Origin: Curtobacterium sp. MCLR17_032 | GTDB lineage: Bacteria > Actinomycetota > Actinomycetes > Actinomycetales > Microbacteriaceae | Length of the DNA stretch: 64,000 nucleotides | Assembly (NCBI RefSeq): GCF_003234795.2 | Contig: NZ_CP126268.1 | Coordinates: 3,286,001-3,350,000, forward strand | Direction: 5' to 3' | In this document: piece by piece, positions 35,489 to 52,990 of the stretch | How the letters are laid out: each line of letters begins with the position of its first letter | Numbering within the stretch: the first letter of the stretch is position 1 | Translations under genes and position numbers: made by a program | Notes under the pieces: model-generated | What the model was told of the DNA's origin: nothing | Databases searched by the model: none | The model's input: the letters and a program-made list of their open reading frames with translations, nothing else

Positions 35489-36358
35489 ATGGACGAACAA
35501 CCACGCTTCCTGCTGCTCCGCTCCGACGACCGGCAGTCGCAACACCGCATCCGCCGGGGCGAACTCGCCCGCGTCACGCACGGTGTCGCCGTCGACGCCG
35601 CCGAGTGGGAGCGCATGTCCGTCCGGGAACGCCAGCGGCTCGTGCTGGAGGCTGTGGTCACCACCGTGGGCGAGTGGCGTGTGCTGTCCCACCGCTCCGC
35701 CGGCCTGCTCTGGGGTCTGCCGGACGTCGACCGGCCGGACCCACGGGTGCACGTGACCGATGCCCTGATCGGCACGACGCACTCCGGCCGCCGGGTCGTG
35801 CGGCACGCCGCTCCCCTCGAGTCCGCTGCCGTGTCGACCGTCGACGGACGCCGGGTCACCTCGCTCCTGCGCACCGTGGTCGACCTGGCGCGCAGCACGT
35901 CGTACGAGAACGCAGTCGCGGTGCTCGACCACGTCCTACACGCGGGCTTGCTCGACGTCGACACCCTGCGACGCGCCCTCGCGGACTGGCCCACGCCTCG
36001 GGGCATCACACGGGCACGTCGAGCACTGCGGTTCGCCGACCCGCGCGCCGAGTCCCCGGGCGAGTCGGTCAGTCGTGTCCGACTCGATGAGGACGGCTTC
36101 ACTCCGCCGGTACTGCAGCAGTCCTTCGGGCGGTTCCGAGCGGACTTCTGGTGGCCGCGGTACGGCGTCGTCGGGGAGTTCGACGGGATGGCGAAGTACG
36201 ACGAGCCCGGGACCGTCCGGGACGAGAAGGCCCGGCAGTCGGCGCTGCTCCTCCGGCACGATGTCCGCACGGTCGTCCGCTGGGGATGGGTGGAGGTCCG
36301 CACCCCGGGTCGGTTGCAGGCGTTGCTGCGGGGGGCGGGCCTCCCGACCGGCCCGTGA
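35489..36358 (+). CDS. AbiEi-antitoxin-like / DUF559 PD-(D/E)XK protein
   Basis: A 289-aa protein of a family common in actinobacteria. The N-terminal third (LLRSDDRQSQHRIRRGELARVTHGVAVD) resembles the AbiEi antitoxin wing, with an RRGELARVTHGV core. The C-terminal part (RFRADFWWPRYGVVGEFDGMAKY) shows a D-x(n)-E-x-D-G-xx-K pattern like DUF559/Vsr-type PD-(D/E)XK nucleases. No AbiEii toxin gene is adjacent, so it is an orphan. ATG at 35489 abuts AGGGGG. The gene is bracketed by two related palindromes, which could mean it moved as a unit. Function unknown; regulator and nuclease are both possible. Confidence 0.72.
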   Translation: MDEQPRFLLLRSDDRQSQHRIRRGELARVTHGVAVDAAEWERMSVRERQRLVLEAVVTTVGEWRVLSHRSAGLLWGLPDVDRPDPRVHVTDALIGTTHSGRRVVRHAAPLESAAVSTVDGRRVTSLLRTVVDLARSTSYENAVAVLDHVLHAGLLDVDTLRRALADWPTPRGITRARRALRFADPRAESPGESVSRVRLDEDGFTPPVLQQSFGRFRADFWWPRYGVVGEFDGMAKYDEPGTVRDEKARQSALLLRHDVRTVVRWGWVEVRTPGRLQALLRGAGLPTGP

Positions 36359-42709: not shown

Positions 42710-43259
42710 CGAGGGCCTCCTGTCCGATCGGGCCGGGACCGGAGCCCGGACCCGTGGGTACCGCAGGCGCCGCGGGCTCGAGTGCGGCACGCATCACCCA
42801 CGCGTCGACCCCGTCGGGCTGGTAGTACCGCGGCCGGGTGGCGATGTGGGTGAACCCGAAGCCGGCGTACATCGTCTGCGCGACCGGGTTGTCGGCGCGG
42901 ACCTCGAGGAAGACCTCGTGCACGCCACGGCGTCCGGCCTCGTCCAGGAGCTCGGTGAAGAGCAGCCGGCCGAGGCCCCGCCCACGCTGCTCGGCGGCGA
43001 CCGCGATGGTCTGCACGTCGGCGACCGGGTTGCCCGGCAGCGACGACAGGCCCGCGTACCCGACGACCGTGGGCGCGGAGTCGTCGCCGGTGGTCTCGAT
43101 GACGACGTAGTACCCGTGCGGGGAGTGCAGTTCCTCGGACATCTGCGACGACGACCACGCGTCGGTGGGGAACGAGACGCGCTCGAGCCACATGACGTCG
43201 TCGAGGTCCGCCGGGTGCGCCCGACGCAGGCGCAGGCCGTCCGGCAGGGCGAGCGTCAC
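42696..43259 (-). CDS. rimI: Ribosomal-protein-alanine N-acetyltransferase RimI
   Basis: GNAT enzyme of 187 aa that acetylates protein N-termini, classically ribosomal S18. Seen: [20 protein letters not shown] near the front, acetyl-CoA loop [53 protein letters not shown]. The C-terminal ~30 residues are a Pro/Gly-rich extension. GTG overlaps the tsaB stop (GTGA). Association with tsaB and tsaD is widespread. Confidence 0.93.
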
Positions 43260-43876
43260 CGGGCGACCCGCTTCGGTGTGCCGGGGACGGTGACGTCGGG
43301 CTCCCGCAGGTACACCGGGGTGTCCGCGGCCAGGGGCGTGCCGGAGGCGAGCCGGTCGGCGGCGAGCACCCCGAGCCTCCCGGCCGGGATCGTGACGGCG
43401 GTGTGCCGGGGCCAGTCGACGAGGTTGGGACGGGAGGCACGCAGCACGTCGTCCAGATCCGCCGGCCTGGCGAGACCCGGGCCGGCGACGCGGACGCCGT
43501 CGGCGTCGTAGGCGCTCCACGCGACCTCGCGGCGGCGGGCATCGGTGAGGACGACGAGGGGGCCGTGCTGACCGGCAGCCACGGCGTCGTGGCTGACGAG
43601 CGGGAGGAACGGGACTTCCCGGGCAGCGGCGAACGTGCGGGCGGCCGCGATGCCGACGCGCAGGCCGGTGAACGGTCCGGGGCCCATGCCGGCGACGACT
43701 GCCGTGACGTCGGCGGGCGTGATGCCGGCGGCGCGCAGGGCCTCGTCGAGGAACGGGCCGATCACCTCGGCGTGACGACGGGTGTCCTCGGTCTCGCGTT
43801 CGGCCAGGACCCGACGGGTCGACGGGTCGACGACGGCGACCGAGGTCCCGGCAGAGGTGTCGATCGCGAGCAGCAC
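43256..43876 (-). CDS. tsaB: t6A synthesis protein TsaB
   Basis: Partner of TsaD, 206 aa, ASKHA fold. Seen: LLAIDTSAGTSVAVVD, the diagnostic GMGPGPFTGLRVGIAAAR, and LVVLTDARRREVAWSAY. GTG at 43876 follows TACGAT by 6 nt, so it is leaderless and heads the operon. The segment RASRPNL is encoded by a single copy of the dispersed repeat core. It is divergent from the uridine-kinase-like gene with 45 bp between start codons. Confidence 0.96.
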   Translation of the reverse strand: MLLAIDTSAGTSVAVVDPSTRRVLAERETEDTRRHAEVIGPFLDEALRAAGITPADVTAVVAGMGPGPFTGLRVGIAAARTFAAAREVPFLPLVSHDAVAAGQHGPLVVLTDARRREVAWSAYDADGVRVAGPGLARPADLDDVLRASRPNLVDWPRHTAVTIPAGRLGVLAADRLASGTPLAADTPVYLREPDVTVPGTPKRVAR

Positions 43877-43882
43877 CCGTCC

Positions 43883-43915
43883 ATCGTAGGCGCGCACCGG
43901 CGCCCGCCCTACGCT
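43883..43915. promoter_or_regulatory. Back-to-back leaderless promoters of tsaB and the kinase gene
   Basis: TACGAT on the minus strand (43883-43888) serves tsaB and TACGCT on the plus strand (43910-43915) serves the kinase; each ends 6 nt before its start codon. The -35 regions of the two must overlap each other's transcription units. Confidence 0.6.
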
Positions 43916-43921
43916 GACGGG

Positions 43922-44530
43922 ATGGACCGCGATGCCTTGCTCGAGCACGTCCGGACACTCCGCGGATCGGCACGGTCGCCGCTCGTCGTCGGGGTGTCCG
44001 GCCACTGCGGGTCCGGCAAGTCGACCCTTGCCCGTGCGCTCGTCGACGCGCTGCCCGGGGCGGTCCGGATCCGGGGTGACGACTTCCTCGATCCGACCCG
44101 TTCTCACCGGCGGTCGACGGACTGGGACGGGGTCGAGCGCCTGCGGCTCGCTGCCGAGGTCCTCGAGCCGCACCGCGCCGGTCGGGCGAGCACGTTCCGC
44201 CGGTTCGACTGGTCCGCCCACACGCTCGGAGCACCGGAGCCGTTGCCGACCACCGACCTGCTCGTCGTCGACCTGATCGGGCTCTTCCACCCGGAGGTCC
44301 GGGGGCTCCTGGACCTGGCGGTCTGGTGCGACGTCGACCTCGACGAGGCAGCCCGGCGAGGGATCGCTCGGGACCGCGAACTCGGACGCTCGCATGACGA
44401 CCTGTGGCGCGACGTCTGGATCCCGAACGACCGCGACTTCGCCGAGCGTTTCGCCCCGCGGGAGTCCGCAGACATCCGGTACCGCTCGCGGGTTCGACGG
44501 TCGGACATCCGCATGCCCGGAGACGGGTGA
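43922..44530 (+). CDS. Uridine-kinase-like P-loop kinase
   Basis: A 202-aa nucleoside-kinase-like NTPase. Walker A is GVSGHCGSGKST (residues about 24-35); IRGDDFLDPTRSHRRSTDWDG corresponds to the substrate-binding strand of uridine kinases, and VVDLIGLFHPEVRGLLDLAVW to the second Asp-containing strand. RRGIARDREL is a lid-like Arg segment. No uracil phosphoribosyltransferase part. The exact nucleoside is uncertain. Confidence 0.8.
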   Translation: MDRDALLEHVRTLRGSARSPLVVGVSGHCGSGKSTLARALVDALPGAVRIRGDDFLDPTRSHRRSTDWDGVERLRLAAEVLEPHRAGRASTFRRFDWSAHTLGAPEPLPTTDLLVVDLIGLFHPEVRGLLDLAVWCDVDLDEAARRGIARDRELGRSHDDLWRDVWIPNDRDFAERFAPRESADIRYRSRVRRSDIRMPGDG

Positions 44531-44666
44531 ACCCGCCGTGACCCGAGGGACTACGACGGCTTCCAGAACCCGAGCAGCCGTTCGACTGCGGGACTGTGCA
44601 TCGACAGTAGCGTGCCTGGGTGATCCCGCCTCCGACGCTCTGACACGGTGGAGCGACCGCCAGCGT

Positions 44667-44728
44667 GGTTCGCGCTGAGCGACCGCACTCGGGCCGCCGG
44701 CCACGAGGACTGTCGCTCAGCGCGAACC
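44667..44728. repeat. Long inverted repeat between convergent genes
   Basis: GGTTCGCGCTGAGCGA and TCGCTCAGCGCGAACC pair perfectly (16 bp) with a 30-nt loop that contains GGCCGCCGGCC. It sits 16 nt past the pnkp stop on that strand and could end both transcripts. The rest of the gap (44531-44666) shows no gene. Confidence 0.75.
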
Positions 44729-44743
44729 TCAGCCCGCGACCGC

Positions 44744-47362
44744 TCACAACCGCGGGTCGACCGCCTCCGACTCCATCGCCAGCACCCCGAACACGGCCTG
44801 GTGCACGCGCCACAGCGGCTCCCCCTCTACGAAGCGCTCGAGCGACTCCAGCCCGAGGGCGTACTCGCGGAGCGCCATCGACCGCTTGTGCCCGAGGTCC
44901 CGGTCCTTCAGGCGCGCCAGGTTGCCCGGCTCGGTGTACTCCGGCCCGTAGATGATCCGCAGGTACTCCCGTCCGCGGACCTTCACTCCCGGCTGCACAA
45001 GCCCCTTCGGCCCGCGGGTCAGGTTCGACTCGGGCTTCACGACGGCACCCTCGCCCCCGGCGCCGGTGAGGTCCTGCCACCACTCGGCCCCGGCCGCACG
45101 GCTCGTCTCGTCCCGCACGTCCACGAGCAGCGACCGGGTCGCCCGCACCACGTCGGGCGCGGCGGCGGCCAGGCGGTCGGCGACCGCCATGTGCCAGCCG
45201 TGCGTCCGGTCCGCGAACGTCCGTCCCCGGGCGGCCAGGACCTGGAACGGCGCGAACCGCACGTCGTCGAGGCCGGTCGCGGGGTCGGCGTACCGGCGGT
45301 AGGACTCGGTGTAGGCGGTGGCGTCGACGGCGCGCTGCTGGGTCCGGGCCAGCAGGTCGGTGACGTCGATGCCGCGGTCACGTGCTGCGGCGAGCGCGGC
45401 CAGGGCGTCCGGGAACGCCCCGCCGGCAGCGGCACCGACCTCGGCGTACCAGTCGCGGATCATGCCCTCGGCCTTGACCGCCCACGGCAGCACCTCGCCG
45501 TCGAGCAGCAGCCAGTCGGTTTCCAGTTCGTCCCAGAGGCCGGCTGCCTCGACCGCTGCGTCGAGCCGTCCGAGGAAGGTCCGGGAGTCGGCGGCGTCGA
45601 AGAACGCCCGGCCGGTGCGGGTGGTCACGACGCCGTTCCAGTCCGCCGGCGCCCCGAAGCGGTCCGGGTCGCGTGCGAGCAGCACGGTGCCGCGGGAGCC
45701 CATGTGCTTCTCCTCCATCCGCACGTGGTCGACGCCCTGGCCCCGGTAGTACGCGAACGCCTCGTCCGGGTGCTCCAGGTGGTCGGGGTGCGCCGAGGTC
45801 GCGACCGGGCTCATCGTCGGCGGCAGGTACGGCAGCCAGCGCGGGTCGACGGCGAACCGGCTCATCACCTCGAGGGCGCCGGCCGCGTTCTCGGCACGGA
45901 TGCCGATCCGACCGTGATGACGGGTCTCGACGATCTGCTTGCCGGTGACGTCCTCGATCGGGAGCAGCCCGGGGACGCGGCGCGGTGCGGCGGGGCCGGC
46001 CACGGGCCTCCCGGCCGGACTGGAGGCACGCCCCACCTCCGCACCGTCGGCACCCGTCATCGACGTGCCCGGTCCGCGCAGCGGCTCGAGCGGCTTGGCG
46101 GCGGCGTAGTGGACCCGCTCGGCGTCGACCTGGACGACCTCGCGCTCGGGGTAGCGGAGCGCGGAGAGCTTGCCGCCGAACACGCACCCGGTGTCGAGGC
46201 ACATCGTGCCGTTGATCCACTCGGCGTCGACCGTCGGCGTGTGGCCGTAGAGGACCGTCGCCTTCCCGCGGTAGGCGTCCGCCCACGGCAGGCGGACGGG
46301 CAGGCCGTACTCGTCGCTCTCCCCGGTGGTGTCGCCGTAGAGCGCGAAGGACCGCACCCGGCCGGAGGCCCGGCCCTGGTACTGCTCCTTCAGCCCGGCG
46401 TGCGCGACGACGAGCCGGCCGTCGTCGAGCACCAGGTGGCCGACAAGCGCGCGGCAGAACTCGCGGACCTCGTCGCGGAAGGTGTCCGGTTCGGCGGCGA
46501 GCTGGGCGAGGGTCTCGGCGAGCCCGTGCGACGTCTGGACCTTGCGACCGTCGAGCGCACGGACGAGCTTGTCCTCGTGGTTGCCGGGGACGGCGAGGGC
46601 GTGGCCGTTCCGCACCATGCCCATCACGAGCCGCAGGACCCCCGGGGAGTCCGGGCCGCGGTCGACCAGGTCGCCGAGGAACAGCGCCTGACGGCCCTCC
46701 GGGTGCACGGCGTCGACGGGTCGGCCGAGGTCGTCGCGGACCAGGGTCCAGCCGAGCCGGCCGAGGAGCGTCTCGAGCTCGGAGCGACAGCCGTGCACGT
46801 CCCCGATCACGTCGAAGGGACCGTGCTCGCCGGTGCGGTCGTTGAGCAGGGGCTCGCGGACGATGGTGGCGGCGGCGATCTCGTCCTCGCCGTGCAGCAC
46901 GTGGACGCGGCGGAACCCCTCCTTGCCCAGGGCCTTGAGCCCGCGGCGGAGCTGCCCCTGCTGGCGTCGGATGACCTCGGGGCCGAAGTCCCGACCGGTG
47001 CGGGCGGCGTTCCGGGCGATGCAGACCGACTCGGGGGCGTCGAGGACGATCGCGACCGGCAGCACGTCGTGCTCGCGGGCGAGCTGCACGAAGTCGCGAC
47101 GGGCCTCGGCCTGCACGTTCGTCGCGTCGACGACGGTGAGCAGTCCGGCACGCAGTCGCTGGGCGGCGATGTGCTTCAGCGCCTCGAAGGCGGCGGGGGT
47201 CGCGGCCTGGTCGTCCTCGTCGTTCGAGACGAGGCCCCGGAAGAAGTCGCTGGACAGGGTCTCGAAGCGACCGAAGTGCTGCGCGGCGAACGTGGACTTG
47301 CCGGAACCACTCGTGCCGACGAGCAGCACCAGGGACATGGTGGGGACGGTCAGGGCGGTCAT
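44744..47362 (-). CDS. pnkp: Polynucleotide kinase-phosphatase of the bacterial RNA-repair system
   Basis: Three-domain RNA end-healing and sealing enzyme, 872 aa, close to the 870 aa of Clostridium Pnkp. Kinase: VGTSGSGKST at 15-24. Metallophosphatase: GDVHGC (187-192), GDLVDRGPDSP (230-240), GNHED (260-264), VAHAGL and YGHTP (372-376). Adenylyltransferase/ligase: nucleotide-binding Lys552 in MEEKHMGSRG, then LLDGEVLPW, GEGAVVKPES and PGVKVRGREYLRI. It heals 2',3'-cyclic phosphate and 5'-OH ends and, with Hen1, seals them. The ATG overlaps the hen1 stop. The 430-460 linker contains RASSPAGRP, encoded by two arms of the dispersed repeat. Confidence 0.96.
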   Translation of the reverse strand: MTALTVPTMSLVLLVGTSGSGKSTFAAQHFGRFETLSSDFFRGLVSNDEDDQAATPAAFEALKHIAAQRLRAGLLTVVDATNVQAEARRDFVQLAREHDVLPVAIVLDAPESVCIARNAARTGRDFGPEVIRRQQGQLRRGLKALGKEGFRRVHVLHGEDEIAAATIVREPLLNDRTGEHGPFDVIGDVHGCRSELETLLGRLGWTLVRDDLGRPVDAVHPEGRQALFLGDLVDRGPDSPGVLRLVMGMVRNGHALAVPGNHEDKLVRALDGRKVQTSHGLAETLAQLAAEPDTFRDEVREFCRALVGHLVLDDGRLVVAHAGLKEQYQGRASGRVRSFALYGDTTGESDEYGLPVRLPWADAYRGKATVLYGHTPTVDAEWINGTMCLDTGCVFGGKLSALRYPEREVVQVDAERVHYAAAKPLEPLRGPGTSMTGADGAEVGRASSPAGRPVAGPAAPRRVPGLLPIEDVTGKQIVETRHHGRIGIRAENAAGALEVMSRFAVDPRWLPYLPPTMSPVATSAHPDHLEHPDEAFAYYRGQGVDHVRMEEKHMGSRGTVLLARDPDRFGAPADWNGVVTTRTGRAFFDAADSRTFLGRLDAAVEAAGLWDELETDWLLLDGEVLPWAVKAEGMIRDWYAEVGAAAGGAFPDALAALAAARDRGIDVTDLLARTQQRAVDATAYTESYRRYADPATGLDDVRFAPFQVLAARGRTFADRTHGWHMAVADRLAAAAPDVVRATRSLLVDVRDETSRAAGAEWWQDLTGAGGEGAVVKPESNLTRGPKGLVQPGVKVRGREYLRIIYGPEYTEPGNLARLKDRDLGHKRSMALREYALGLESLERFVEGEPLWRVHQAVFGVLAMESEAVDPRL

Positions 47363-48855
47363 GCGGCGGTGCCTCCGGTCGTCGGGCTGGTGGTCGTCGA
47401 GCTGGTGGTCGTCTGGCCGCCGGTCGTGTGGCGGCGGAACAGGGCGAGCTGGGTGGGTGGGCCGACCTCGGGGTCGTCGTCGCCCACGGGTCGGTGCTCG
47501 ACGGTGTAGCCCTGCCGGTCCCCGACGGCCTGCGCCCACGTGCGGAACTCGTCGCGCGTCCACTCGAACCGGTGGTCCGGGTGCCGGAACCGACCGGCCG
47601 CCAGCGAGGCGAAGCGGACGTTGTGCTCGGCGTTCGGGGTGGTCACGACGACGGCGGCGGGCCGGGCGGCCTGGAACACCGAGGCCTCGAGTGCCGGCAG
47701 CCGCTCGGGGTCGACGTGCTCGACGACCTCCATCAGGACGACCGCGTCGAGGCCGGCGATCCGGTCGTCGGAGTACGTGACCGAGGACTGCAGCAGCCGC
47801 ACGCGGGCCCGCTGCTCGTCACTGACGTCGTCGAGGCGCAGGCGCCGCTCGGCCCGTGCGAGTTCGCGGGGTGCGACGTCGGTGCCGATGATCGTCGTGA
47901 AGGAACGGTCGGCGAACAGGTGTCGGAGCAGGGCGCCCTCGCCGCAGCCGACGTCGGCAACCGTGTGGGCCTGGACGTCGGCGAGCGCCATCAGGACGGC
48001 CTCGGCGCGGCGGCGGTACAGCGGTGTCTCGGGCCGATCCGTCGCCCCGTCGTCGTCCGCCGGCGCCTCGTCGACGGGCGCGTCCACCGAACCACCGTCC
48101 CCGGCCGTGCCGTCGAGCCCGAGCAGTCGTCCGGTCGCGTCGTCGACGAGGGACCGCTGGTGCGCGAGCGACCGGGTCGTGATGAGCTCGCGGAGCGGGT
48201 GCTCGGCCAGCCACCCCTCGCCGCGACGGAGCAGCATGCCGACCTCGTCGTCGCCGACCCAGTAGTGCTTGGCGTCGTCGAGCACCGGCAGCAGCACGGT
48301 GAGCTGGCGGAGCGCGTCGGCCAGCCGGACCCGGCCACGCAACCGCAGCCCGACGGTGGCGGCGTCGCCCCACTCCGGACGGGTGTCGTCGAGCGGCCGG
48401 CGGGTCTCTTCGACGTCCCAGCCGAGCGGTGCGAACAGCCGGGTGGCGAGGCCCATCCCGTGCTCGTCGACCTCGCTGGGCACGCTGGTCAGGCCGAGTT
48501 CGAGGTCCATCGGCTCGGCGGCGCGCTCCGGCCGCGAGGTGCTGCGTCCGCCCATCGCGCTGCGGAACACCTGCCCGATCGCCAACGCGAGCATCGAGGT
48601 CGACGCGTACGGACGGTCGTTGACGTAGCGGGACAGCGCCTGCGCGTCGGCGCCGTACCGCTTGCTGCGGGCGAGGGCGATGGCGTCCACCTCGAGCAGC
48701 AGGGCGGCGGTGCACTCGTCGGGGGTGTCCGCGGGGTAGAAGACGTGTGCCGTGCCGACGCTCAGGTCGAAGGACTGGGCCTTCCCGGGGTGCTTGTGCA
48801 GCAGGTGGGAGAGGTCCGGGGCCGCGTCGCCGCGGGTGGTGATGGTCACGAGCAT
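47359..48855 (-). CDS. hen1: RNA 3'-terminal 2'-O-methyltransferase Hen1
   Basis: Methylates the 2'-OH of the repaired RNA end so that the sealed site resists the same ribotoxin. The 498-aa protein has the bacterial N-terminal Pnkp-activating half (about 1-245; HLLHKHPGKAQSFDLSVGTAHVFYP is split across it as LLHKHPGK and GTAHVFYP) and a C-terminal methyltransferase half: SAM loop DVGCGEGALLRHL (301-313), manganese-site MEVVEH (Glu376, Glu379, His380) and RHPDHRFEWTRDEF with the further His. The last ~25 residues are Thr/Ser-rich. GGAGG precedes the ATG. First gene of the two-gene operon. Confidence 0.96.
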   Translation of the reverse strand: MLVTITTRGDAAPDLSHLLHKHPGKAQSFDLSVGTAHVFYPADTPDECTAALLLEVDAIALARSKRYGADAQALSRYVNDRPYASTSMLALAIGQVFRSAMGGRSTSRPERAAEPMDLELGLTSVPSEVDEHGMGLATRLFAPLGWDVEETRRPLDDTRPEWGDAATVGLRLRGRVRLADALRQLTVLLPVLDDAKHYWVGDDEVGMLLRRGEGWLAEHPLRELITTRSLAHQRSLVDDATGRLLGLDGTAGDGGSVDAPVDEAPADDDGATDRPETPLYRRRAEAVLMALADVQAHTVADVGCGEGALLRHLFADRSFTTIIGTDVAPRELARAERRLRLDDVSDEQRARVRLLQSSVTYSDDRIAGLDAVVLMEVVEHVDPERLPALEASVFQAARPAAVVVTTPNAEHNVRFASLAAGRFRHPDHRFEWTRDEFRTWAQAVGDRQGYTVEHRPVGDDDPEVGPPTQLALFRRHTTGGQTTTSSTTTSPTTGGTAA

Positions 48856-48921
48856 GCGCGTGGCCTCCGATCGTCGTGGTCCGGCGTCGCTGCCGCCCGG
48901 CGGTTCCGAGGCCGGAGAGCG

Positions 48922-48952
48922 AGCCTAGTACGACGGGACGGTGCACAGGCAA
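48922..48952 (-). promoter_or_regulatory. Candidate promoter of hen1-pnkp
   Basis: Minus-strand -35 TTGCCT (48947-48952), 19-nt spacer and -10 TAGGCT (48922-48927), giving a leader of about 60 nt. An inverted repeat CGGGACGGT (48934-48942) / ACCGTCCCG (48974-48982) flanks the -35 and may be a control site. Confidence 0.5.
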
Positions 48953-49019
48953 CGTCAGCAGACTGGGACGTCGACCGTCCCGCCGAACCCGGCGCCGGTC
49001 CCCCGACAGGAGGCCCGTG

Positions 49020-49628
49020 ATGGTCGTGTACGACAGCCGCCCGATCCGACGTGCCCGGCAACTCGTCGGGGACGTCCTGGTGCTGGTCGGCATCGTCCTG
49101 GCGGTGGTCGTCGGCCGCGACGTCGCCGGTTCGATCGCCCGGCTCGCCACGATCGGCACCCGGGTGCAGTCCGAGGGGACCGCGTTCCAGCAGCAGCTCT
49201 CCGCCACCGCACGCGCACTGTCGCGGATCCCGCTCGCTGGGGACGCCGTCAGCAGTCCGCTCCGGAAGGCCAGCGAGCACGCGGGCGCCGTCGCCGCCGC
49301 CGGTGCCCAGCAGCACGACACGGCCCTGCACCTCGCGCACCTGGTCGGCGGCGGGCTGACCGTCGTCGTCATCGCCCTGCTGCTGCTGGTGTGGGTCCGG
49401 ACCCGTGGGCGCTTCGTCCGGGTGGCGAGTGCCACCAGCAGCGTCGACCGGTCGCCGGACGGAGCCGAACTCCTCGCGCTGCGGGCCCTCGTCGGTCGGG
49501 ACGCCGTCGTCGCCCTCGGGCCCGGTGTGGTGGACCGGTGGCGCGGGCGGGACCCGCAGACGGTCGCGGCGCTGGCGGACCTCGAGCGGCGGAGCTGCGG
49601 CCTGCGGACCCGGGCGGGCCGCGACTGA
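49020..49628 (+). CDS. Hypothetical protein with two membrane helices
   Basis: Not recognised. The 202-aa protein has a first helix (GDVLVLVGIVLAVVVGRDVAG) and a second near residue 113 (GGGLTVVVIALLLLVWVRT), separated by a helical Ala-rich region that may sit outside the membrane; the C-terminal third is cytoplasmic and ends in RRSCGLRTRAGRD. ATG at 49020 has AGGAGG at 7 nt; that ribosome site is itself part of an ACAGGAGGCCCG repeat copy. Divergent from hen1, but no functional link is visible. Confidence 0.75.
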   Translation: MVVYDSRPIRRARQLVGDVLVLVGIVLAVVVGRDVAGSIARLATIGTRVQSEGTAFQQQLSATARALSRIPLAGDAVSSPLRKASEHAGAVAAAGAQQHDTALHLAHLVGGGLTVVVIALLLLVWVRTRGRFVRVASATSSVDRSPDGAELLALRALVGRDAVVALGPGVVDRWRGRDPQTVAALADLERRSCGLRTRAGRD

Positions 49629-49697
49629 CCGGCACCGGTCACCGTTCGTGGCCGGATCGTCACCGCCGGGTCCTGGTCCGCGCCGCTCGCTTGGCGG

Positions 49698-49703
49698 TAC
49701 CGT
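49698..49703 (+). promoter_or_regulatory. -10 element TACCGT of the 54-aa gene
   Basis: Six nt before the ATG at 49710. Confidence 0.5.
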
Positions 49704-49709
49704 CACCGC

Positions 49710-49874
49710 ATGGACGCCGTGTGGGCCGCAGCATCGTGTGCGCTGGAGAACGTGCCGTGCAACGACGGCGGCGGCGGTGCCCTGGACGCGACCGGCGTGT
49801 TCGTCACCGTCGTGGTCGTCGTGGCCGTCATCGTGCTGTTCGGTGTGCTCCTGCTCGGACGCTCCCGCCGCTGA
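49710..49874 (+). CDS. Small membrane protein (54 aa)
   Basis: Not recognised. A short exposed head with two Cys (AASCALENVPCNDGGGG) is followed by one strongly hydrophobic helix (VFVTVVVVVAVIVLFGVLLL) and GRSRR at the end, so the head should lie outside. The leaderless promoter at the standard 6-nt spacing, the clean codon usage and the positive-inside tail argue that it is a real gene. Confidence 0.6.
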   Translation: MDAVWAAASCALENVPCNDGGGGALDATGVFVTVVVVVAVIVLFGVLLLGRSRR

Positions 49875-50135
49875 CGTCCGCACCCCGCCGGTCCAGGGCG
49901 CTCCGGGCGCGCACGACGAGGTCGAGGACGCCTGCCTCGAGTTCGGGTCACGCGACAGGCGTCCTCGCGCTACGACGCCGTCGGGTACGACGTTGGCGCA
50001 CGACGATGTCCGACCCGGTAGTGGGGGGACGGGCGACCGCGGCCAGGGTCCGCGGTGTAGCGCGGGCGACGCTACGCTTCCCGGTCCCACCGGCCAAGCG
50101 TTCCGGATCGGGTTGTCCGATCTCCGCGGAGAGCG
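49875..50135. other. Non-coding gap with a hairpin
   Basis: No gene is supported. GAGGACGCCTG (49924-49934) and CAGGCGTCCTC (49956-49966) form an 11-bp stem with a 21-nt loop, the probable terminator of the 54-aa gene. TAGTGG and TAGCGC-like hexamers follow but lead to no start codon. Confidence 0.5.
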
Positions 50136-50193
50136 GGACGGGAGGCCCACCCGACGTCCGCCACACGGGCCCGGTGATCCGGGCCTCCCGTCC
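50136..50193. terminator. Terminator hairpin of the dispersed-repeat type
   Basis: GGACGGGAGGCCC (50136-50148) and GGGCCTCCCGTCC (50181-50193) pair perfectly, 37 nt beyond the tsaE stop and downstream of the 54-aa gene. Confidence 0.75.
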
Positions 50194-50229
50194 AGGACGA
50201 CGAGCGTCAGCCGACGGTCCGCGCCACGG

Positions 50230-50730
50230 TCAGAGCGTGGCGTCCTGCCACCGCGGCCCGGTCCCGGTCACGACGACCCGGCGCGGTTCGTCCGGCACCT
50301 CGTCCGGATCGACGTCGTCGTCATCGTCCGCGCCCCCGCCACCGGTCGGCCGGGTGATCTCGACGTCCAGGACACTGTCACCGACCCCGTCGACCATCCC
50401 GCGGCCCCACTCGACGACGACGATCGAGCCGTCCCAGTCGAGGTCCAGGTCGTCGAGCTCGACCGGGTCGGACAACCGGTACGCGTCCACGTGGACCAGG
50501 TCCGGACCAGCCGTCGTCGGGTGCGTCCGAGCGAGCACGAACGTCGGGCTGGACACCTGCCCGCGAGCGCCGAGCGCTGCACCGAGTCCCCGGGTCATCG
50601 TGGTCTTGCCGGCGCCCAGGGGCCCGGTGAGGACGACCAGGTCCCCCGCCCGGAGCACGGCGGCGATCCGGGCACCGAGCGCGCCCATCTCGTCCGTCGT
50701 GGCGACCGTGGTGTCGAGGAGGACGCTCAC
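50230..50730 (-). CDS. tsaE: t6A synthesis ATPase TsaE
   Basis: ATPase that supports the TsaBD complex, 166 aa. Seen: LTGPLGAGKTTMTRGLGAALG (Walker A), VSSPTFVLARTHP, HVDAYRL and VVVEWGRGM, all family blocks. After them comes an acidic stretch ADDDDDVDPDEVPDE not found in E. coli TsaE. GTG overlaps the stop of the first alanine racemase gene. It is in the cell-wall operon, not with tsaB and tsaD. Confidence 0.95.
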   Translation of the reverse strand: MSVLLDTTVATTDEMGALGARIAAVLRAGDLVVLTGPLGAGKTTMTRGLGAALGARGQVSSPTFVLARTHPTTAGPDLVHVDAYRLSDPVELDDLDLDWDGSIVVVEWGRGMVDGVGDSVLDVEITRPTGGGGADDDDDVDPDEVPDEPRRVVVTGTGPRWQDATL

Positions 50731-51890
50731 GACCGCTCGCCCCGCAGGTACTCCCCCACGCGGCCCTCGCCGGAGTGCCCCTCGTACACGCGCGGGACCC
50801 GGCTGCCGATCCGGCAGACGATCTCCTCGCCGATGGTGTCGAGCGCCCGGCCCCACTCGAGGACCGTGGCCTCGCCGTCCTCACCGGTGCCGAACAGCGT
50901 CACGGTGTCACCGACCCGGACGTCGTCGTCGCCGACGTCGACCAGGAACTGGTCCATCGCGACGCGGCCGGCGATCGGGTACCGGGTGTCGTCGATCGCG
51001 ACCTCGAGGCGCCCCTGGGCGGCACGGGGGACGCCGTCCGCGTAGCCGACCGGCACGAGCGCCAGGGTCGTCTCGGTGTCGGTGCGGTACGTGTAGTCGT
51101 AGGAGACGCCGGTGCCGACCGGGACGCGCTTCGTCTTCGCGACGGAGGCGGAGAGCGTCATCACGGGCGTCAGGCCGAGGTCGGCGGCGGAGACCCCGTC
51201 GGCACCGGGGATGCCGAACAGGTTGGCGCCCATCCGGACCATGTCCTTCCGGAACTCCTTGCGCTCCAGGCCGGCGAGCGAGGCGGCGACGTGTTCCCAC
51301 CGGATGTCGAGCCCCAGGTCCTCGGCCTGCTCGACCATGGCGTCGAAGTGCGCCACGGCGGCGGAGTCGTCGGCGTCCGAGGACTCCGCCAGGTGCGTGT
51401 ACGCGGCGACGACCTCGATGCGGCCGTCGCGCTGGGCGTCGCGCGCCAGTTCGACGAGTGCGGTCCAGTCCTCGGCGGTCGCGCCGTCACGGTGCAGGCC
51501 GCTGTCGACGCCCAGGTGCACGCGCGCCGGACGCTGGTCGACCGCGTCGACGATGCGACGCAGCTCCGCGATGTTGGAGACACCGAGGTCGACGGCCGAG
51601 TCGATGGCGTCGCGGAAGTCGAGCCCCGGGTCGTGCTGCCAGGTGAACAGGTGGACGTCCTCGCCGACGCCGATGGCGCGCAGCCGCAGCGCCGCGGGCA
51701 CCGTCAGCACACCGATCCACCGGATGCCCGCGTCGACCGCGGTCAGGGCGATGGGTTCGAGGCCGTGCCCGTAGGCGTCGGCCTTCATGATCGCCATCAC
51801 CTCGACCGGCTGCATCCACGACCGGACCAGGTCGAGGTTGGCGCGGTAGGCGTCCAGGTCGATGACCGCCCGGCGCAGTCCTGCGCTCAC
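50727..51890 (-). CDS. Alanine-racemase-family protein, divergent paralogue
   Basis: PLP fold-type III racemase, 387 aa. PLP lysine in IMKADAYGHG, catalytic Tyr region GVSYDYTYR, and VAMDQFLVDVG near the end are all present. Changes from standard Alr include VDSGLHRDG for VDTGLSRNG and RMGANLFGIPG for R-x-G-x-x-LYG. The enzyme therefore looks active but altered in its substrate pocket. It could make D-alanine or another D-amino acid such as D-ornithine for the wall bridge. GTG overlaps the stop of the other racemase gene. Confidence 0.88.
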   Translation of the reverse strand: MSAGLRRAVIDLDAYRANLDLVRSWMQPVEVMAIMKADAYGHGLEPIALTAVDAGIRWIGVLTVPAALRLRAIGVGEDVHLFTWQHDPGLDFRDAIDSAVDLGVSNIAELRRIVDAVDQRPARVHLGVDSGLHRDGATAEDWTALVELARDAQRDGRIEVVAAYTHLAESSDADDSAAVAHFDAMVEQAEDLGLDIRWEHVAASLAGLERKEFRKDMVRMGANLFGIPGADGVSAADLGLTPVMTLSASVAKTKRVPVGTGVSYDYTYRTDTETTLALVPVGYADGVPRAAQGRLEVAIDDTRYPIAGRVAMDQFLVDVGDDDVRVGDTVTLFGTGEDGEATVLEWGRALDTIGEEIVCRIGSRVPRVYEGHSGEGRVGEYLRGERS

Positions 51891-52990
51891 GTCGTCCTCC
51901 GTTCGACGCTGCGGCCGACCCGGGCGACCACCTCGTAGTTGATGGTGCCGATCGCGGCGGCCCAGTCCTCCACCGCGGGGTCGCCGTTCGCCGGATCGCC
52001 CCAGAGCACGACCTCGTCCCCGATCGCGACGTCCGCGTCCCCGATGTCGATGTGCATCGCGTTCATGGCCACCCGTCCGACGACCGGGAACCGCCGGTCC
52101 CCGATCCGCACCGAGACGTGGTTGCCGTACGCCCGGTCGAAGCCGTCGGCGTACCCGAGTCCGATCACCGCGAGCCGGGTGTCCTGCTCGGCACGCCAGG
52201 TGTACCCGTACGAGACACCGTCCCCCGCGGGCACCGCGACCGTCCGCAGCACCGCGGCGGTCACCCGCATCGCGGGCCGCAGGCCGAGGTCGGCCGAGGT
52301 CCGGTCCGGGAACGGGCTGAGTCCGTACAGCGCCAGACCCACCCGGGCCAGGTCGCGGCGGGTCTCCGGCAGCGCCAGGCTGCCCGCGCTGGCGGCGAGG
52401 TGCACGACGTCGGGGCGGATGCCGACCGCTGCCAGGCCGTCGATCGCCCGCTGCAGTGCGGCGTCCTGGTCGAGGTCGTCCGAGCGTGAGGCGTTCGACA
52501 GGTGGGACATCAGCCCCTCGATGCGGGTGCGGTCGCCGTTCCGGGTCAGGGCCGCGGCCGTCGCGAAGAGCTCGGGCCACTCGGACTCGACCGCTCCGTT
52601 GCGGCTGAGGCCGGTGTCCACGACCAGGTGCACCTCCGGCACGTCGGCGTCGGCCGCGGTGGAGAGCTGCTCGACGCTGGAGACCGCCGGGGTGATGCCG
52701 TACCGGGCCGCACGGCGGAAGTCCTCGTCGGGGGCGTGCAGCCACGCCAGGATCCGGACGCCCTCGTCGATGCCGGCCTCACGGAGCGCGACCGCCTCGT
52801 CGAGGTCCGCGACCCCGAGCCAGTCCGCGCCGGCGTCCACCAGGGCCCGGGCGACCTCGACGGCACCGTGCCCGTACGCGTCGGCCTTCACCACCGCGAC
52901 GACGCCGGACGGAGCCACCTGTTCCGCGACCGTGGCGTAGTTGGCGATCAACGCCTCCCGGTCGACGGTCACCCCCGTGAACGCGCTCAC
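51887..52990 (-). CDS. alr: Alanine racemase
   Basis: PLP enzyme interconverting L- and D-alanine for peptidoglycan, 367 aa. Seen: VVKADAYGHG with the PLP lysine, VVDTGLSRNG, ARVGLALYGLSPFP, catalytic Tyr in GVSYGYTW. One departure: the normally conserved AMDQ reads AMNAMHID, an Asp-to-Asn change next to the active site. By overall pattern this is the more standard of the two racemases, hence the symbol. GTG start overlaps the acpS stop. Confidence 0.92.
   Translation of the reverse strand: MSAFTGVTVDREALIANYATVAEQVAPSGVVAVVKADAYGHGAVEVARALVDAGADWLGVADLDEAVALREAGIDEGVRILAWLHAPDEDFRRAARYGITPAVSSVEQLSTAADADVPEVHLVVDTGLSRNGAVESEWPELFATAAALTRNGDRTRIEGLMSHLSNASRSDDLDQDAALQRAIDGLAAVGIRPDVVHLAASAGSLALPETRRDLARVGLALYGLSPFPDRTSADLGLRPAMRVTAAVLRTVAVPAGDGVSYGYTWRAEQDTRLAVIGLGYADGFDRAYGNHVSVRIGDRRFPVVGRVAMNAMHIDIGDADVAIGDEVVLWGDPANGDPAVEDWAAAIGTINYEVVARVGRSVERRTT

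What the first reader, a model, noticed from the sequence alone, without database searches (positions are those of the whole stretch)
44744..48952. Complete Pnkp/Hen1 RNA-repair operon in an actinobacterium
hen1 and pnkp overlap by 4 nt and share a promoter candidate at 48922-48952. All three Pnkp active sites (Walker A at 15-24, phosphatase GDVHGC/GNHED, ligase Lys552) and the Hen1 EVVEH metal site are intact. Established work on Clostridium and Anabaena homologues shows that the pair repairs and then methylates ribotoxin-cut tRNA. Inference: this strain faces anticodon nucleases or colicin-like toxins from competitors. No ribotoxin gene is nearby, which favours defence against outside toxins. 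The flanking inverted repeat CGGGACGGT/ACCGTCCCG around the -35 is a candidate control site.
Basis: partly seen in the sequence, partly recalled or inferred. Interest (0 to 1): 0.72.

Follow-up and report, generated by a model that had tools for sequence, protein, structure and literature searches.

The report
Ordinary Pnkp–Hen1 RNA-repair operon
This is an intact copy of a well-described two-gene bacterial system that heals, methylates and reseals broken RNA; in this genus it was seen at one fixed place between transfer-RNA modification genes and seems to have been lost several times.

Summary
The operon is really there: hen1 (47359-48855) and pnkp (44744-47362), both on the minus strand, overlap by 4 nt. 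They encode full-length proteins far above the curated family cut-offs, with the catalytic residues that I checked intact. It is a member of the known Pnkp–Hen1 RNA-repair family in a Curtobacterium chromosome.

The proposed control site is not supported. The inverted repeat is whole in 1 of 13 Curtobacterium-type operons, and 24.5% of window tiles hold one like it. The −10-like TACTAGGCT is kept in 8 of 13, the −35-like TTGCCT in 2 of 13.

New context: the operon is in 12 of 66 Curtobacterium genomes and lies between tsaE and tsaB in 12 of 12. The pnkp genes form one clade, while presence is patchy on an rpoB tree (six changes). One ancestral gain with repeated loss is the simplest history.

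What cuts the RNA is unknown. The 'outside toxins' inference is untested: no link with AAA_13 (PrrC/RloC-type) genes, and the genome also carries RtcB. In the published model methylation precedes sealing.

The parts
47359..48855 (-). hen1: 498 aa, N-terminal Hen1_L (ligase-activating) domain plus C-terminal 2'-O-methyltransferase
   Evidence: TIGR04074 611.5 bits against cut-off 340; Hen1_L PF12623 E 3.7e-94; PDB relatives 4dqz, 3jwh
44744..47362 (-). pnkp: 872 aa, kinase, metallophosphatase and ligase modules
   Evidence: TIGR04075 1312.4 bits against cut-off 750; PNKP_ligase PF16542 E 7.9e-165; PDB 4drf, 3ty8, 4j6o, 4gp6
47359..47362 (-). 4-nt ATGA overlap of the hen1 stop and the pnkp start
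   Evidence: a 4-nt overlap in 13 of 13 Curtobacterium-type operons (12 ATGA, 1 GTGA) and 79 of 96 distinct other loci
48922..48930 (-). TACTAGGCT, candidate -10 region of the operon (inference)
   Evidence: kept in 8 of 13 upstream regions; no consensus promoter called
48856..48921 (-). hen1 leader with GGAGG Shine-Dalgarno at 48868-48864; conserved in sequence among 8 loci of one type; no fold stability beyond shuffles
   Evidence: 39 invariant of 68 columns in the 8-sequence alignment; z 0.00 for the window, -1.28 to +1.07 over 13 leaders
50230..50856 (-). tsaE (t6A synthesis; name recalled from sequence), upstream edge of the variable interval that holds the operon; the true start may be nearer 50730
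   Evidence: matched in 66 of 66 genus genomes
43256..43879 (-). tsaB (t6A synthesis; name recalled from sequence), downstream edge of the interval, followed by rimI and tsaD

Best explanation
A standard bacterial Pnkp-Hen1 RNA-repair operon. RNA broken by a metal-independent endonuclease, leaving 2',3'-cyclic phosphate and 5'-OH ends, is healed by the Pnkp phosphatase and kinase; Hen1 then 2'-O-methylates the 3' end; the Pnkp ligase, which needs the Hen1 N-terminal domain to become active, seals the break, so that the repaired RNA resists a second cut at that place. Shown here: gene structure, family membership, intact catalytic residues, coupled overlap. Inferred from homologues: the chemistry and the Hen1 dependence. 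Unknown: the RNA repaired in vivo and what cuts it. In Curtobacterium the operon most likely entered once, between tsaE and tsaB, was inherited vertically and was lost repeatedly. The confidence given is for the identity and the mechanism by homology; for the history I would say about 0.75.
For: Family models far over cut-off for both proteins; solved homologues cover every domain; active-site residues invariant in the proteins aligned; coupled overlap in 13 of 13 Curtobacterium-type and 79 of 96 other distinct loci. Hen1 and Pnkp over cut-off in the same 12 of 66 genus genomes. Same tsaE-tsaB site in 12 of 12; 13 Curtobacterium-type Pnkp proteins form one clade (SH-aLRT 100); the rpoB tree needs six changes of presence; no remnants at E up to 0.1 in the 20 negative loci read. 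Mechanism: PMC4411300, introduction and sections 5, 9, 10.
Against: No expression or activity data. G018 sits differently in the rpoB and hen1-pnkp trees. Only 20 of the 54 operon-free genomes were read at the locus. Re-entry by homologous recombination in the flanks could mimic vertical descent at one site. Upstream regions are of at least two types: 5 of 13 lack the window's TACTAGGCT.
Confidence: 0.93

Rival explanations
1. The operon is specifically a defence against tRNA anticodon nucleases delivered by competitors or used in phage defence.
For: Patchy presence (12 of 66) fits a conditionally useful trait; the paper's authors propose ribotoxins as the source of damage.
Against: In vivo substrates unknown and broad substrate specificity in vitro. 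No association with AAA_13 (PrrC/RloC-type) genes: 1 of 12 against 7 of 54; other anticodon-nuclease families were not searched. No partner gene recurs across distant genera in the 14 flank clusters printed.
Confidence: 0.45
2. The operon is a general RNA-damage housekeeping system, partly redundant with RtcB.
For: The window's genome also holds RtcB. RtcB is absent in 5 of 12 operon-bearing against 7 of 54 operon-free genomes (Fisher p = 0.034; 4 of 11 against 6 of 51 when genomes under 90% complete are dropped, p = 0.067).
Against: The association is weak and not corrected for kinship; 7 of 12 operon-bearing genomes keep RtcB. 54 of 66 genomes lack the operon.
Confidence: 0.35
3. The operon is functionally tied to t6A synthesis because of its place between tsaE and tsaB.
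For: 12 of 12 Curtobacterium operons lie there; t6A37 lies in the anticodon loop (recalled).
Against: None of the 70 other loci shows a TsaE, TsaB, TsaD or Alr match at E 1e-8 in its fetched flanks, some of which are short. In 20 negatives the same interval (39 to 4515 bp) holds unrelated cargo or nothing. In the window a divergent gene lies between hen1 and tsaE.
Confidence: 0.05

Closest known systems
[quoted passage not shown] Clostridium thermocellum and Anabaena proteins, source names recalled)
   Same: Both genes in one operon, all domains, the catalytic residues checked, 4-nt overlap
   Different: Nothing found beyond the chromosomal site; by eye, a 22-residue Thr-rich low-complexity tail on this Hen1 and an Ala/Gly/Pro-rich linker before the ligase module
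Pnkp1-Rnl-Hen1 complex (Capnocytophaga gingivalis, PMC4411300)
   Same: Same four activities; distant Hen1 and ligase similarity (4xrp/4xru hits)
   Different: Three separate proteins with a phosphatase of another superfamily; here kinase, phosphatase and ligase are one chain
T4 Pnkp-Rnl1
   Same: Heal-and-seal logic (PMC4411300 introduction)
   Different: No Hen1 methylation; separate ligase

Membership tests
Bacterial Pnkp-Hen1 RNA-repair system | Pnkp with kinase, metallophosphatase and ligase modules in one chain | tested here: met
   AAA_33 11-136, Metallophos 182-376, PNKP_ligase 496-866; TIGR04075 1312 bits
Bacterial Pnkp-Hen1 RNA-repair system | Hen1 with N-terminal ligase-activating domain and C-terminal methyltransferase | tested here: met
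   Hen1_L 1-244 and methyltransferase domain; TIGR04074 611 bits
Bacterial Pnkp-Hen1 RNA-repair system | Both genes in one operon | tested here: met
   Same strand, ATGA overlap; transcript not tested
Bacterial Pnkp-Hen1 RNA-repair system | Catalytic residues of all four active sites | tested here: met
   Motif positions; residues invariant among 11 Pnkp and 10 Hen1; residue roles recalled
Bacterial Pnkp-Hen1 RNA-repair system | Hen1-dependent sealing and 2'-O-methylation of cleaved RNA | not testable with these tools
   Needs purified proteins
Catalogued anti-phage defence system (PADLOC) | Strong match to a catalogued defence protein | tested here: not met
   Only partial matches, to the methyltransferase part (mad2, 40.2 bits) and a 25-residue P-loop stretch (mad8, 17.3 bits)
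   1 of 13 loci; 19.6% of shuffles and 24.5% of 212 tiles

The most novel reading that the evidence does not exclude
In Curtobacterium the tsaE-tsaB gap of the t6A locus is a standing slot for optional genes, and the RNA-repair operon is an old occupant: gained once in the ancestor, kept in place, and cleanly lost or replaced many times, possibly traded against RtcB. This would give sister species with and without the operon in which to find the natural RNA damage that it answers.
Probability: 0.4. Interest if true: 0.35.

Novelty: new member of a known kind. Interest (0 to 1): 0.18.

Why it matters
The enzymes are well understood, but by the 2015 paper their natural RNA target was not. Close pairs of species that differ by presence or absence at one locus (G035 against G048, G056 against G052) are a practical setting in which to look for it. 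The system itself is ordinary.

Tried and rejected
The inverted repeat as an operator: rejected. A structured, Shine-Dalgarno-masking hen1 leader: predicted folds looked alike in several loci, but fold energies equal those of shuffles (z 0.00 for the window; range −1.28 to +1.07 over 13 leaders). Against my dropping it: the Shine-Dalgarno is mostly paired in the hen1 leaders (mean unpaired probability about 0.24 over the 13 values), lower than the mean of six of seven control gene sets (0.28 to 0.59) and equal to the seventh (RimI, 0.23). No covariation count was made. I leave it open as unsupported, not excluded. A conserved third partner gene: in the flanks of the 79 loci, the 14 clusters printed span at most four actinobacterial genera; one cluster more than 1.2 kb away also holds a Planctomycetota locus. 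A link with AAA_13 genes: none. Toxin genes near the operon in the window: I scanned 12 non-operon ORFs with Pfam and PADLOC, 11 of them among the 52 ORFs called (count checked), and found no ribotoxin; the rest were judged by eye from the first 45 residues only. Cargo of the tsaE–tsaB slot: Pfam was run on representatives of 9 of the 22 clusters that are neither hen1 nor pnkp. An Abi-like reading of a cargo gene beside pnkp in G035 (L107): no Pfam match and one weak PADLOC match (PD-T4-5, 17.9 bits), so not claimed. Literature: five answered searches. Of PMC4411300 I read the outline with its abstract, the introduction and sections 5, 9 and 10; other papers were seen as listings only. In one search (14 papers, all listed) none held Curtobacterium together with Pnkp; one held Curtobacterium with a single 'hen1' (PMC8073158, a review on nematode control). 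No structure prediction was run, because solved homologues cover the domains.

Full report
What is there. On the minus strand, hen1 (47359-48855, 498 aa) is followed by pnkp (44744-47362, 872 aa); the ATG of pnkp overlaps the TGA of hen1 by 4 nt. Hen1 scores 611.5 bits against the equivalog model TIGR04074 (cut-off 340), and Pnkp 1312.4 bits against TIGR04075 (cut-off 750). The expected domains are present, and solved homologues cover them: 4dqz and 3jwh for Hen1; 4drf, 3ty8, 4j6o and 4gp6 for Pnkp.

Active sites. In an alignment of 11 Pnkp proteins (identity to the window's copy 53 to 88%) K22, D188, H190, D234, N261, H262, K552, E623, K776 and K794 are invariant. In 10 Hen1 proteins (48 to 90%) E376, E379, H380 and H428 are invariant. 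The catalytic roles of these residues are recalled from work on the Clostridium and Anabaena proteins, not taken from a call.

Mechanism. From PMC4411300 (introduction and sections 5, 9, 10): cleavage leaves cyclic-phosphate and 5'-OH ends; Pnkp heals them; the Hen1 N-terminal domain activates the otherwise blocked ligase; in the model for the related three-protein complex, which the authors expect to hold for Pnkp–Hen1, the 3' end is methylated after dephosphorylation and before ligation. The paper states that in vivo substrates are unknown and that the complexes may be generic.

Distribution. The genus is Curtobacterium: the nearest named relatives are C. salicis WW7 and Curtobacterium sp. 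MCPF17_052, 96% identical in Pnkp. Counting the window's own genome, Pnkp scores over the cut-off in 21 of 119 relatives and in 40 of 398 genomes drawn from the family. Hen1 scores over the cut-off in 12 of 66 genus genomes, the same 12 that hold Pnkp. The 4-nt overlap is found in 13 of 13 Curtobacterium-type operons (12 genomes plus locus L165) and in 79 of 96 distinct other loci; of the rest, 11 are arranged otherwise, 3 have a distant Hen1 match and 3 lack one.

Chromosomal site. In 12 of 12 operon-bearing Curtobacterium genomes the operon lies between tsaE and tsaB. I read 20 of the 54 operon-free genomes at this place: the interval runs from 39 to 4515 bp and holds varied cargo, such as GH16-like secreted proteins, a sigma factor, a CAAX-protease-like protein or an Arr-like gene, or nothing (only part of the cargo was scanned). 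No pnkp or hen1 remnant was found there at E up to 0.1. None of the 70 other loci shows t6A genes in its fetched flanks at E 1e-8; several of these flanks are short.

History. On a 32-genome rpoB tree the presence label needs six changes, against 9.9 on average in shuffles (2 of 500 as low). The 13 Curtobacterium-type Pnkp proteins form one clade (SH-aLRT 100), and their branching largely follows rpoB; G018 moves between places that are weakly supported on the rpoB tree. One gain in the ancestor with repeated loss fits best. G048, sister of operon-bearing G035 on the rpoB tree, matches it at 89 to 94% in the flanks and has other sequence in place of the operon. G052 against G056 shows the same, with flanks at 92 to 97% in the stretches next to the gap and beyond tsaE.

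Regulation. Of 13 upstream regions, 8 share the window's type: there TACTAGGCT and much of the leader are conserved. The other five lack TACTAGGCT. Such repeats occur in 19.6% of shuffles of the region and in 24.5% of 212 window tiles. Leader fold energy is at shuffle level; the Shine-Dalgarno is predicted to be mostly paired, more than in six of seven control gene sets, so masking is unsupported but not excluded.

Co-occurrence. RtcB is present in 7 of 12 operon-bearing and 47 of 54 operon-free genomes (p = 0.034; 7 of 11 and 45 of 51 when genomes under 90% complete are left out, p = 0.067). AAA_13 is present in 1 of 12 and 7 of 54 (p = 1). These tests are not corrected for kinship.

Verdict. 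An ordinary, intact member of a known system. The additions are its fixed slot in the t6A locus of one genus and its likely repeated loss there.

Noticed in passing
window 43880-50229 (tsaB to tsaE) and L099-L129: The tsaE-tsaB gap of Curtobacterium is a variable slot (39 bp to 10.8 kb over 32 genomes read) holding different cargo in different species.
   Followed up: partly
window 35489-36358 (+): A 289-aa protein with weak PADLOC matches to AbiEi-type antitoxins (best 34.8 bits) and no Pfam match; no partner toxin was looked for.
   Followed up: no
L107, bases 728-1492 counted from tsaB within the tsaB-tsaE interval (G035): An unclassified 254-aa ORF beside pnkp with a weak PD-T4-5 match (17.9 bits) and an RNRINH stretch that recalls HEPN RNases (recalled motif); a cluster of one.
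   Followed up: partly
window 43922-44530 (+): A uridine-kinase-like P-loop gene (PRK family 35.1 bits) between pnkp and tsaB on the opposite strand, in 5 of the 12 operon-bearing genomes.
   Followed up: partly
L111, bases 1786-2202 counted from tsaB within the interval (G023): An Arr-like rifampin ADP-ribosyltransferase ORF (PF12120, 160 bits) in the same slot in an operon-free species.
   Followed up: no
window 50727-52990 (-): Two consecutive alanine-racemase-like genes next to tsaE (names recalled). Matches lie next to tsaE in 32 of 32 Curtobacterium loci, cut by the end of the stretch in L103 and L105.
   Followed up: no
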